Below are positions 1,658 to 6,017 of a stretch of 25,285 nucleotides of DNA, piece after piece. Within the stretch, counting starts at the first letter, position 1. Each line of letters opens with the position of its first letter. Both the position numbers and the translations under genes were made by a program. Below the pieces are notes generated by a model. The model saw nothing but the letters and a program-made list of their open reading frames with translations. It did no database searches and was not told where the DNA came from. This stretch comes from a virus: the IMG/VR virus record IMGVR_UViG_3300005336_000049, positions 1 through 25,285 of that record. One strand, written 5' to 3'.

Positions 1658-1836
1658 TGGGCGACAAGGGCTTCCATCTGTCTAGCAAGACCATTTGCCC
1701 GGTTTGCCAGAAGCCGATCCGGCGCACCAAGAGCGACTCGTACAGCTGCGCCGCGTGGCTCGACTTCCAACCCGCCCACATCCGCTGCGCCGCCGCCACG
1801 CAACCCCGCGAAATGGCCGCAGGAGGCGCCGAATGA
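1657..1836 (+). CDS. Small zinc-finger protein, 59 aa
   Basis: 59 aa from ATG 1657, overlapping the HNH stop by one base (TGATG). It contains CPVC near residue 15, then C31 and, after AAWLDFQPAH, H41-x2-C44: enough ligands for one zinc site (C-x2-C...C...H-x2-C). The arrangement resembles short HNH-less 'CPVC..PI' treble-clef peptides encoded by phages, but no family can be named. The stop is shared with the start of the Ntn hydrolase (ATGA), so the two are probably translationally coupled. Confidence 0.65.
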   Translation: MGDKGFHLSSKTICPVCQKPIRRTKSDSYSCAAWLDFQPAHIRCAAATQPREMAAGGAE

Positions 1837-2390
1837 CCTGCATCGTCGGGATCGCCACCAAGACCGGCACCCTCATCGCTGGAGACAGCCTCGCGTCGAA
1901 CTGGTACACCCAGACGCGGCGCACAGACCGGAAGGTGTTCAAGCTCGGCGACCACGTCGCCGTCGGCTTCACCAGCAGTTACCGGATGGGGCAGATCATC
2001 CGCTACCACGTCACCGCGCCGAGCCTGCGCGACGCGGAAGGCGAGTGGATCGACGCCTTTGAGTACGCCGTCAAGTACCTGATCCCCGAGGTGCGCACGC
2101 GGCTCAAGGAACACGGGTTCACGAAGGTCGAGAACAGCGTCGAAGAGGGCGGCCGGTTCGTGCTCGGGATCCGCGACCGCGTATTCATCGTCGACAGCGA
2201 CTTCCAGGTCGGCGAGTCGACCGACGGGTACGTCGCCGCCGGCAGCGGCGAAGAGGTCGCACTCGGCGTCCTCTACCACACCCGCGCCGAGAAGGACTCC
2301 GCGGCGGAACGGGCCGAGGCGGCGATCAGAGCCGCCGAGTACCACAGCCGCGGCGTCGGCGGCCCGATCGAAACCGAGGAGACCACATGA
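1833..2390 (+). CDS. HslV/proteasome-beta-like Ntn hydrolase
   Basis: 185 aa from ATG 1833 (ATGA overlap; AGGAGG at 1821 upstream). After the initiator Met comes T2; D18 (in AGDSLAS) and K34 (in DRKVFKLGD) fall exactly where T1, D17 and K33 lie in HslV once Met is removed. GSG at 137-139 followed by EEVALG matches the HslV GSG-xx-AL motif with the helper serine, and the C-terminal AERAEAAIRAAEYHSRGVGG resembles the proteasome ending. This strongly suggests an active N-terminal threonine peptidase or amidohydrolase. No ATPase partner (HslU-like) is visible, so it may act alone on small substrates, use a host unfoldase, or serve in host or virion protein turnover. The substrate is unknown. Confidence 0.85.
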   Translation: MTCIVGIATKTGTLIAGDSLASNWYTQTRRTDRKVFKLGDHVAVGFTSSYRMGQIIRYHVTAPSLRDAEGEWIDAFEYAVKYLIPEVRTRLKEHGFTKVENSVEEGGRFVLGIRDRVFIVDSDFQVGESTDGYVAAGSGEEVALGVLYHTRAEKDSAAERAEAAIRAAEYHSRGVGGPIETEETT

Positions 2391-3783: not shown

Positions 3784-4020
3784 ATGAGTGACGCGCTGCT
3801 CAACCACCTCTCAAGCGGGGGTTTGGCCGCGACCGAACACCGGCCGTGGCCCCAAGCCCTCCGCAGCCGCCTAACAGCCGCCATCGAAGCCGTCCAATGC
3901 CTCGACATCCACGACGCGCTCGCCCTCCTCGAAGACCTCGCCGGTGACCTCGCCGCGCTCGACCACGCCTACGAATCCACGAGCGCCGAAGCGGCATACC
4001 AGCGGTGGAAGGCGTCGTGA
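3784..4020 (+). CDS. Small helical protein, 78 aa
   Basis: 78 aa from ATG 3784, with GGGGAAGGG at 3763-3771 as a likely ribosome binding site. All-helical, acidic in the second half (DIHDALALLEDLAGDLAALDHAY) with no cysteines. No family is recognised. The 53 bases before it hold only an 11-codon frame (3727-3762) opening on the upstream stop. The gene ends in a GTGA overlap with the DUF3987-like ATPase, so it may be made in step with it as a partner protein. Confidence 0.6.
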   Translation: MSDALLNHLSSGGLAATEHRPWPQALRSRLTAAIEAVQCLDIHDALALLEDLAGDLAALDHAYESTSAEAAYQRWKAS

Positions 4021-5639
4021 CCAGCGTCCAACTCCCCCCGAGCGGGCTCCTACGCGCTTGGGTCGACACGTTCGAGCCGATGACCGAGGCGCCCGCCGAA
4101 GCGCAACTCGCGACGGGCATCGCGATCGTCAGCGCAGGCGTCGGCTGGAAAGCACCGATCCGATGGGGCACCTCGTCTGAGCCGTGCACCATCAGCTCGA
4201 TCCTGGAAGGCGGCAGCGCGATGGGCCGCAAGACAACGACGATGAACGGCGGCCGCGCGATCGTCCACGAGGCCACCGGAGACATCCCCCCAGAGCATCG
4301 CGGCCTGTTCGCGCACATGCTCGGCCACACCAGCGACGTCGGCCTGCTCGAACTCGTCGCCCCTAAAGACAAGGAAGAGGCCGAGCGTTGGGAATCCACA
4401 CCGCCGCCCGGCCACGTCCTCAACTGGGACGAGATGGGCGGCATCCTCGGCGACCCAGGCGTCGCCCGGAAAGGCGGAGACTGGCACGGCCGCACGCGCA
4501 CCACCATGATGAGCCTCGCCAACGGCCGGCACGGCGGCATCAAGACGGGCGCCAAGAAGTTCCCGTCGGCCAGGTGCGCCGTCGCGATCGTCGGCACCAT
4601 GACGCGAGTCGAGCTCGAACAACGAGTCGACACCGGCCTGCTCCGCGACGGGTTCCTCGGCCGGTTCATGCTCATCCCCCACAACGGCCGCGCCCGCCTC
4701 CTCAGCCAGCCGCCCGCATGGACGCCCGCCCAGGTCGAAGCGAAACAGTCGATCGTCCAATGGGTACGAATGCTCAGCGAGCGCCGCGAACCGTTCGGCG
4801 ACGCATTCTCGCTCTTCACGCCGGCCGCGCTCGAGGAACGCAAGCGGTGGTACATCGAAACGACACGCCGTCTCGACCGCGAAGCCGACCGAGACCCGAC
4901 AGACGCCACCCGCGCCGCCGTAGAAGCGTTCGCGCGACTCCAAACGACACAGGTAAAGCTCGCCGTCTGCGCCGCCGTCAGCGACATGCCGACCTCGAAA
5001 CTCGCCACCGGCACGCCCATCGTCACGCTCGAACATGCGCAGTGGGCGCAGAGCGTCATCGACACCAGTTTCCAGGAAGTCGTCGAACTCGCGCGCGGCG
5101 GCGGCCAGAACCCGGAAGATGAATACCGCGGCCACGTCGTCGCATACCTCGCGACACGCGGCAAGGTGCCACGCAAGGAACTTCTGCACAACTGCACCTT
5201 CAAGCAGATCTCGGCGCACCGAAGATGGAGCATCATCCGCGACCTGCATGAGGACGGGACGCTGGCCGTCGAGCTCGAGCAGACCAGCGGCCGACCCCGC
5301 CAGGTCATCGCCGTGACCAGAGATACGGACGCTTACGACCGTCCACCAGAGCCAGAAACGGCGACTAACGGACGTTCCCCAACCATCCACGAGACCCGAA
5401 ATCCGAACGGCCATAAGCCAGATCCAGCGTCCGTACCAACGTCCGAAAGTCGAGACGCGTCTGAGTCCTATACACGTATTCCCCCCCTTACGGGAGTTAC
5501 GACACATACGGACATACACAGAGACGACCCCGAAAACAGCCCTCAGATAGACACACCGCCGTCCGTAACGTCCGAAACGCCCGTAAGCCCCCCAGAACCC
5601 GACCCCTACATCCTCCCCAACGACGACATCCCCTTCTAA
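4017..5639 (+). CDS. DUF3987-like replication ATPase with SSB-type tail
   Basis: 540 aa from GTG 4017, chosen for the GTGA overlap and GGAAGG at 4007-4012; GTG 4005 is an alternative. Residues ~1-370 look like the RecA-fold ATPase of DUF3987 phage/plasmid primase-helicase proteins: an atypical Walker A (G65-GSAMG-RKTTT), Walker B (VLNWDE, D138-E139), and the GLLRDGFLGRFM arginine segment. Residues ~395-440 resemble a winged helix (KVPRKELLHNCTFKQISAHR). Residues ~440-528 are a Pro/Thr/Ser-rich linker, and the last residues are NDDIPF, matching the C-terminal peptide of bacterial SSB (DDDIPF) that recruits PriA, RecQ, Exo I and others. This suggests a replication initiator or helicase that docks host replication proteins by SSB mimicry. 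Confidence 0.75.
   Translation: MTSVQLPPSGLLRAWVDTFEPMTEAPAEAQLATGIAIVSAGVGWKAPIRWGTSSEPCTISSILEGGSAMGRKTTTMNGGRAIVHEATGDIPPEHRGLFAHMLGHTSDVGLLELVAPKDKEEAERWESTPPPGHVLNWDEMGGILGDPGVARKGGDWHGRTRTTMMSLANGRHGGIKTGAKKFPSARCAVAIVGTMTRVELEQRVDTGLLRDGFLGRFMLIPHNGRARLLSQPPAWTPAQVEAKQSIVQWVRMLSERREPFGDAFSLFTPAALEERKRWYIETTRRLDREADRDPTDATRAAVEAFARLQTTQVKLAVCAAVSDMPTSKLATGTPIVTLEHAQWAQSVIDTSFQEVVELARGGGQNPEDEYRGHVVAYLATRGKVPRKELLHNCTFKQISAHRRWSIIRDLHEDGTLAVELEQTSGRPRQVIAVTRDTDAYDRPPEPETATNGRSPTIHETRNPNGHKPDPASVPTSESRDASESYTRIPPLTGVTTHTDIHRDDPENSPQIDTPPSVTSETPVSPPEPDPYILPNDDIPF
5323..5576. repeat. Seven iteron-like octamers in the ATPase linker
   Basis: The octamer TACGGACG (or one-base variants) occurs at 5324-5331, 5367-5374 (AACGGACG) and 5507-5514 (TACGGACA) on the + strand, and as CGTCCGTA/CGTCCGAA at 5428-5435, 5440-5447, 5560-5567 and 5569-5576. 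Two tight pairs (5428-5447 and 5560-5576) share the order CGTCCGTA then CGTCCGAA, encoding PASVPTSES and PPSVTSETP. The local DNA is visibly less GC-rich than the rest. Lambda carries its origin iterons inside the linker of its initiator gene O, so a replication origin is a fair guess. The repeats are seen; the origin role is inferred. Confidence 0.55.
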
Positions 5640-6017
5640 ATGCCCGACTTCCGCCGCCAACGAGACACCGCCAGAGCCGAACGAGACGAAGCTCTCCAAC
5701 AACTCGAAGACCTCCGAGCCATCACCGGCTGGATCGAACCCGCCTACGCCAAAGCACTCCGCGACCACGCCGAACTCGCACCCAACGCCATCCGCCGCAT
5801 CTCCGCCGGCGTCAACGGCATCCCCGAATCACGACCACCCAGCTACGACGCCCGCGCCTACAACGACCTCCGCCGCCAAAAAGAGTTCCAACGCCGCCAA
5901 GCCGAATACCTACGCCGCCGCCTCCGCCACCTCGTCGACGGCGACCACGACCCCGACGACGGAGCCACCGAAATGCCCACCCGTGCGCAACCCCGGGGGG
6001 AAAAAAGAACCGCATGA
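5640..6017 (+). CDS. Basic coiled-coil protein, 125 aa
   Basis: 125 aa, starting one base after the ATPase stop. Highly charged and helical: residues ~3-28 (RRQRDTARAERDEALQQLED) and ~78-100 (RRQKEFQRRQAEYLRRRLRH) look like coiled-coil helices around a central GWIEPAYAKALRDHAELAP segment. No recognisable domain. Strongly C-rich coding strand (C-ending codons throughout). Given that no small terminase is recognised, this is one candidate for that role, but a replication or nucleoid-binding accessory is equally possible. The stop overlaps the next start (ATGA). Confidence 0.6.
   Translation: MPDFRRQRDTARAERDEALQQLEDLRAITGWIEPAYAKALRDHAELAPNAIRRISAGVNGIPESRPPSYDARAYNDLRRQKEFQRRQAEYLRRRLRHLVDGDHDPDDGATEMPTRAQPRGEKRTA

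What the first reader, a model, noticed from the sequence alone, without database searches (positions are those of the whole stretch)
5604..5639. SSB-like DDIPF tail on a phage DUF3987 ATPase
The ATPase ends ...YILPNDDIPF after a ~90-residue disordered linker. The last residues match the C-terminal peptide of bacterial SSB (DDDIPF), the docking site for PriA, RecQ, RecO, Exo I and chi. A helicase/primase-like protein with this tail, not an OB-fold SSB, suggests the phage recruits host replication enzymes by mimicry. Actinobacterial SSBs as I know them tend to end EPPF, so the match to the DDIPF form is also of interest for host assignment.
Basis: partly seen in the sequence, partly recalled or inferred. 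Interest (0 to 1): 0.75.

Follow-up and report, generated by a model that had tools for sequence, protein, structure and literature searches.

The report
Phage helicase with SSB-like tail
A phage replication helicase ends in the short peptide that bacterial single-strand-binding protein uses to recruit replication enzymes, and the stretch of gene just before it looks like the phage's replication origin, so one gene may combine the motor, its starting site and a hook for host enzymes.

Summary
The ORF at 4005-5639 ends ...PYILPNDDIPF, a perfect SSB C-terminal (SSB-Ct) peptide, on a protein with no OB fold: a distant DUF3987-type helicase core followed by a winged helix. Chance is unlikely: DDIPF occurs 0 times internally in 778,000 residues, and most viral ORFs ending DDIPF that could be named are ssDNA-binding or replication proteins.

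Three homologues (38-43% identical) lack linker and tail. Two come from genomes I could search, and both encode an SSB ending in DIPF. This phage's 38-kb contig has no recognisable SSB.

The 'disordered linker' is not ordinary coding sequence. It holds the strongest repeat array in the contig (TTACGGAC-type), has unusually low GC and has lost codon periodicity, which returns in the last 15 codons. Homologues carry comparable arrays just after the helicase stop codon. Most likely this is a replication origin embedded in the gene, as in lambda O.

A second, unrelated phage helicase (AAA_25/DnaB-like, L092) has the same layout: iteron linker, DDDIPF, no SSB in its contig. The recruitment idea is well supported by sequence but untested biochemically. 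The host inference is not supported.

The parts
4005..5639 (+). Replication helicase/initiator ORF, 544 aa (GTG start), ending NDDIPF
   Evidence: (PHROG 3022 'DNA primase', C-terminal helicase half, E 4e-14)
4209..4241 (+). Walker A-like motif GGSAMGRKTTT (GGSA and KTTT shared with the homologues)
   Evidence: alignments; function inferred from sequence
4419..4433 (+). Walker B-like motif LNWDE (WDE invariant)
   Evidence: alignments; inferred
5112..5315 (+). Winged helix-turn-helix domain at the end of the conserved core
   Evidence: AlphaFold2 model of residues 362-445, mean pLDDT 81; Foldseek hits are mostly winged-helix DNA-binding proteins
5310..5591 (+). Linker (94 codons) without codon-position GC periodicity; lower total GC than every 94-codon gene window tested
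5325..5584 (.). Iteron-like array: 9 copies (at most 1 mismatch) of ACGGACGT in both orientations at 5325, 5335, 5368, 5427, 5439, 5508, 5559, 5568, 5577; putative replication origin
   Evidence: strongest repeat window of the 38-kb contig
5592..5636 (+). SSB-Ct-bearing tail PEPDPYILPNDDIPF; codon-position GC back to gene-like 0.67/0.33/0.87
5640..6017 (+). Next ORF (125 aa, unknown); its ATG directly follows the helicase TAA

Best explanation
The gene encodes the phage's replicative initiator-helicase: a DUF3987-like ATPase core followed by a winged helix. Downstream of the winged helix the reading frame runs through the phage's replication origin, an AT-richer array of about nine TTACGGAC-type iterons that the winged helix most likely binds. 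The frame then ends in an SSB-Ct peptide (NDDIPF). Proposed mechanism: the helicase binds and melts its own gene's origin. Its ring of disordered tails presents several SSB-Ct peptides that dock host enzymes recognising this peptide. The most useful would be DnaG primase and the Pol III chi/clamp-loader complex, possibly PriA. In this way the peptide that relatives carry on a phage SSB is carried on the helicase instead. Shown from sequence: the tail, the array, the loss and return of codon periodicity, the comparative pattern, and a predicted winged-helix fold. Inferred: origin function, iteron binding, helicase activity, multimer state and the identity of the partners.
For: Tail: rarity. Of 231 viral ORFs ending DDIPF (at least 60 aa, counting overlapping records), 119 fall in one SSB-like cluster. 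In a set of 78, Pfam and PHROG matches are mostly ssDNA-binding proteins plus SF2 helicases, RecT and ERF. A T7 gp4-like primase-helicase, a DnaB-like helicase and an AEP primase also end DDIPF. Tail swap: tailless relatives encode an SSB ending EDDDIPF (G002) or GSDIPF (Mae-JY09). The window's contig G001 and L092's contig G403 have no PF00436 hit, no match to HMMs of 15 DDIPF protein clusters (positive controls found), no DnaG zinc ribbon and no Prim-Pol. Origin: the array is the top repeat window of the contig (-log10 p 14.3, next 8.0). The corresponding position just after the helicase core is also the top window in G002 (14.3 v 6.1) and L009 (10.9 v 6.5), and marginally in Mae-JY09 (7.7 v 7.0). 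There it is mostly non-coding. In G002 the terminase lies about 16 kb from the array. Codon periodicity: core GC 0.68/0.51/0.84, linker 0.60/0.60/0.55, tail 0.67/0.33/0.87. Second case: L092, an unrelated AAA_25/DnaB_C helicase ending DDDIPF, with 9 TGGTGTGC iterons in its linker and the same periodicity pattern. Precedents: lambda ori lies inside gene O (PMC3349717); the origin of pRN1 lies directly downstream of its primase-helicase gene (PMC4234260); SSB-Ct binds DnaG, chi, PriA and Exo I (PMC5872125); the T7 gp4 helicase has an acidic tail ending in Phe that docks its polymerase (PMC12230644).
Against: Only one natural occurrence of this tailed protein is known: the matching IMG/VR contig differs by one base over the window, so it is the same population. 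All three close homologues and the remoter ones examined lack the tail. The tail-swap pattern rests on four genomes, and a divergent SSB could be missed. The contigs may be incomplete. The array in Mae-JY09 is barely significant. Repeat arrays can also be packaging or operator sites. No binding or replication data exist. An open frame of this length through the linker is not itself very unlikely (7% by a Markov model). The whole-protein structure model was poor (pLDDT 37).
Confidence: 0.68

Rival explanations
1. The array is an origin and the frame merely happens to read through it; the DDIPF ending is a coincidence without function.
For: All close homologues lack the extension. Loss of one stop codon could create the linker; no stop over 108 codons has probability 7% in such sequence.
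Against: DDIPF has probability about 2e-7 per C-terminus, with 0 internal cases in 778,000 residues. Codon-position bias returns in the last 15 codons. A second unrelated helicase has the same layout. The contig lacks an SSB while relatives have an SSB with this tail.
Confidence: 0.1
2. The repeat array is not an origin but a packaging site (cos/pac) or an operator for a regulator; the tail is still a genuine SSB-Ct.
For: In the window, Mae-JY09 and L009 the array lies between the helicase gene and the terminase genes. GC skew changes sign near 6.5 kb.
Against: In G002 the array follows the helicase although the terminase lies about 16 kb away. The helicase core ends in a winged helix. The arrays lie in locally AT-richer DNA, as in known origins.
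Confidence: 0.15
3. The tail is real but serves regulation rather than recruitment: it folds back on the helicase's own DNA-binding surface, or acts as a decoy that frees host SSB-binding enzymes from SSB, or binds the phage's own RecT-like protein.
For: The SSB tail is reported to bind weakly to its own DNA-binding site (cited in PMC5928155). A RecT-like gene is present in the contig. In phage HK620 the SSB tail NDYPPF is needed for Sak4 to bind SSB-coated DNA.
Against: Nothing specific. The phage lacks recognisable primases, which favours recruitment.
Confidence: 0.2

Closest known systems
Bacterial and phage SSB (PF00436) C-terminal tip, SSB-Ct DDDIPF
   Same: Identical last five residues after a disordered linker; the same kind of peptide used by relatives' SSBs
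   Different: No OB fold; the carrier is an ATPase/helicase with a winged helix
Lambda O initiator with ori-lambda inside gene O (PMC3349717)
   Same: Iterons and an AT-rich stretch inside the coding region of the replication protein
   Different: O is not an ATPase and recruits DnaB through lambda P (own knowledge); here the carrier is itself a helicase and ends in SSB-Ct
pRN1 ORF904 primase-helicase (PMC4234260)
   Same: Origin lies directly 3' of the primase-helicase gene, as proposed for the homologues
   Different: Origin is a stem-loop outside the coding region; no iterons; no SSB-Ct reported
T7 gp4 primase-helicase acidic C-terminal tail
   Same: Helicase whose acidic C-terminal tail with terminal Phe recruits a replication partner
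   Different: Binds the phage polymerase rather than host SSB-Ct partners; no origin known in its linker (own knowledge)
L092 helicase (AAA_25/DnaB_C) in IMG/VR contig G403
   Same: ATPase, apparent winged helix (read from sequence), iteron-bearing linker, DDDIPF; no phage SSB found
   Different: Different ATPase family and iteron sequence (TGGTGTGC)
Microcystis phage Mae-JY09 WWT39933.1
   Same: 41-42% identical helicase core in the same gene position
   Different: Ends after the winged helix; SSB-Ct is on its separate SSB WWT39930.1

Membership tests
SSB-Ct peptide (DDDIPF class) | C-terminal acidic residues followed by [I/L]PF at the very end | tested here: met
   NDDIPF-stop; rarity
SSB-Ct peptide (DDDIPF class) | Binds SSB-interacting proteins | not testable with these tools
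   needs a binding assay
SSB protein (PF00436) | OB-fold domain | tested here: not met
   no PF00436 match in the protein or contig
DUF3987 (PF13148) | Match to the Pfam model | tested here: not met
   no hit for the window protein or three homologues
DUF3987 (PF13148) | Homology to accepted members | tested here: inconclusive
   HMM of the window family finds Loki gp32 (E 4e-4) and the C7 primase (E 5e-5), both PF13148 members
Lambda O-type origin-in-gene initiator | Iterons inside the initiator's own coding region | tested here: met
Lambda O-type origin-in-gene initiator | AT-rich unwinding element beside the iterons | tested here: inconclusive
   linker GC 57-58% against about 67%; no distinct AT block
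Lambda O-type origin-in-gene initiator | Protein binds iterons and initiates replication there | not testable with these tools
   winged helix predicted; binding not tested
Hexameric replicative helicase | P-loop ATPase motifs | tested here: inconclusive
   GGSA...KTTT and WDE conserved, but the Walker A is non-canonical and the full model is poor

The most novel reading that the evidence does not exclude
There is a convergent class of phage initiator-helicases in which one gene holds the motor, an origin-binding winged helix, the iteron origin written into the disordered linker, and an SSB-Ct tip that takes over the recruiting role of a missing phage SSB.
Probability: 0.5. Interest if true: 0.8.

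Novelty: new variant of a known kind. Interest (0 to 1): 0.66.

Why it matters
Each element has a precedent: an origin inside lambda O, an acidic tail on T7 gp4, and SSB-Ct itself. I found no description of all three in one gene, nor of the SSB-Ct moving from SSB to helicase between related phages. If true, it shows how a small phage without its own primase or SSB can pull host enzymes to its origin through a five-residue hook. It also explains why the linker sequence looks unconstrained as protein, because it is constrained as DNA, and it gives a direct way to find phage origins: search for iterons in linkers just upstream of DDIPF ends.

Tried and rejected
The DUF3987 label from Pfam: no direct hit; kept only as a remote relation.

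Family-wide tail conservation: searches of phages, plasmids, IMG/VR, GTDB contigs and 400 genomes of the phylum of L009's MAG gave only three close homologues, all tailless; a search with the remoter C7 protein found nothing.

Whole-protein fold: uninformative.

Raw repeat counts are misleading in this GC-rich genome, so expected counts per motif were used. One codon-position table was out of frame for the linker and was recomputed; the linker-composition figure at the end had the same frame error and is not used.

Host assignment from DDIPF: rejected.

Relatives of the L092 helicase in phages and plasmids were remote and lack the tail.

Antisense ORF 4050-5768: judged a high-GC artefact on general grounds, not tested.

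Full report
Observation. The ORF 4005-5639 encodes 544 residues and ends ...PEPDPYILPNDDIPF. The last five residues equal the E. coli SSB tip (DDDIPF; PMC5872125). It is the only such C-terminus in six frames of the 38.3-kb IMG/VR contig G001, of which the window is positions 13019-38303 with a single base difference. By amino-acid frequency the exact ending has probability about 2e-7. In 778,333 ORF residues DDIPF never occurs internally, and the loose form occurs at 2.6e-6 per residue.

What carries it. No Pfam or NCBIfam model matches. PHROG 3022 'DNA primase' matches through its helicase half (E 4e-14). A profile of the window protein and three homologues reaches Loki gp32 and the phage C7 primase-polymerase, which are PF13148/DUF3987 members. 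DUF3987 has been predicted to be a helicase replacing RepA, DnaB or MCM (PMC5862659). The core ends in a winged helix (model pLDDT 81; Foldseek hits are mostly winged-helix DNA-binding proteins). So this is a replication ATPase, probably a helicase, without an OB fold.

Homologues. Mae-JY09 WWT39933.1, L009 (Chloroflexi MAG contig) and G002 (IMG/VR) are 38-43% identical and all stop just after the winged helix. However, Mae-JY09 has an SSB ending DDGSDIPF and G002 has an SSB ending PPEDDDIPF. The window's contig has no PF00436 gene, nothing matching HMMs built from 15 clusters of DDIPF-ending proteins (controls), no Prim-Pol and no DnaG zinc ribbon.

The linker is an array. From 5325 to 5584 there are nine copies of ACGGACGT with at most one mismatch, in both orientations (0 of 100 Markov sequences reach nine). 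Measured against each motif's own frequency, this is the strongest repeat window in 38 kb (-log10 p 14.3; next 8.0). In each of the homologues the strongest window is also just after the helicase core: G002 CTTTCGGA (14.3 v 6.1) and L009 TTACGCGG (10.9 v 6.5), both non-coding, and Mae-JY09 TTATCCGG (7.7 v 7.0, marginal; it begins at the end of a small ORF that follows the helicase). The motifs resemble one another (TTACGGAC, TTACGCGG, TTATCCGG). In the window the frame runs through the array. The linker has total GC below every one of 4,363 gene windows and codon-position GC 0.60/0.60/0.55, against 0.68/0.51/0.84 in the core. In the final 15 codons it returns to 0.67/0.33/0.87, above every 15-codon linker window in GC3. 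This suggests that the linker is constrained as DNA and the tail as protein.

Origin or something else. A packaging site is possible because terminase genes follow in three genomes, but in G002 the terminase is about 16 kb from the array. An origin next to or inside the initiator gene is well known: lambda ori lies in gene O (PMC3349717), and the pRN1 origin lies directly 3' of its primase-helicase gene (PMC4234260). Origin function here is inferred, not shown.

Independent second case. In a survey of viral ORFs ending DDIPF most that could be named are ssDNA-binding proteins. Some are not: SF2 helicases, RecT, ERF, a T7 gp4-like primase-helicase and an AEP primase. One, L092:2969-4192(-), is an AAA_25/DnaB_C helicase with an apparent winged helix (read from sequence, not modelled), a linker of about 60 residues and DDDIPF. 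Its linker carries nine TGGTGTGC-type repeats (0 of 200 Markov sequences; top window of its locus, 13.8 v 6.7), and shows the same loss and return of codon periodicity (0.67/0.45/0.76, then 0.59/0.69/0.47, then 0.60/0.47/0.87). Its 42.8-kb contig also lacks PF00436 and primase hits. It is not detectably related in sequence to the window protein: the window-family profile did not match it.

Mechanism proposed. The winged helix binds iterons in its own gene, the ATPase melts or loads there, and the tails of the multimer dock host enzymes that recognise SSB-Ct, most usefully DnaG and the Pol III chi subunit. T7 gp4 gives a precedent for a helicase with an acidic, Phe-ending tail that docks its polymerase (PMC12230644). 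In HK620 the phage SSB tail is needed to bring in Sak4 (PMC5928155).

Limits. There is one natural sequence of the tailed form, four genomes in the tail-swap comparison, no binding data, and contigs of unknown completeness. The literature searches found no earlier report of an SSB-Ct on a phage helicase, but only open-access papers are held.

Noticed in passing
window 1695-2390 (+): Proteasome/HslV-family peptidase gene (PF00227 E 4e-9, phrog_1040 E 6e-25) in a tailed-phage early region.
   Followed up: no
window around 6500: GC skew changes sign sharply from about -0.34 to +0.27 near the start of the terminase gene.
   Followed up: partly
L099:4105-5631 (+): T7 gp4-like primase-helicase (Helic-prim_T7_N, Toprim, AAA_25) ending DDIPF without a long linker.
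   Followed up: partly
L019:4836-6524 (-), L083:9403-11409 (+), L129:683-2416 (-): Cluster of phage SF2 (ResIII/DEAD) helicases ending DDDIPF.
   Followed up: partly
L114:538-2091 (+): AEP-TOTE type primase ending NDDIPF, another replication protein with an SSB-Ct end.
   Followed up: no
L131:6341-7132 (+), upstream of the window in G001: RecT-like annealing protein in the same phage, a possible partner of the SSB-Ct tail.
   Followed up: no
L131:3967-4809 (+): Phosphodiester glycosidase (NAGPA, PF09992 E 2e-12) in the phage contig.
   Followed up: no
L134:2796-3692 (-) in G002: In G002 the Prim-Pol domain (PF09250 E 3e-49) is a separate gene directly upstream of the helicase, a split version of the fused primase-helicases.
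   Followed up: partly
L002:3051-3085 and L009:1940-1990: By eye, Mae-JY09 and L009 share a non-coding stretch resembling GGTATATA...CCCTGCATACGGGCA beside the iterons, a possible conserved origin element.
   Followed up: no
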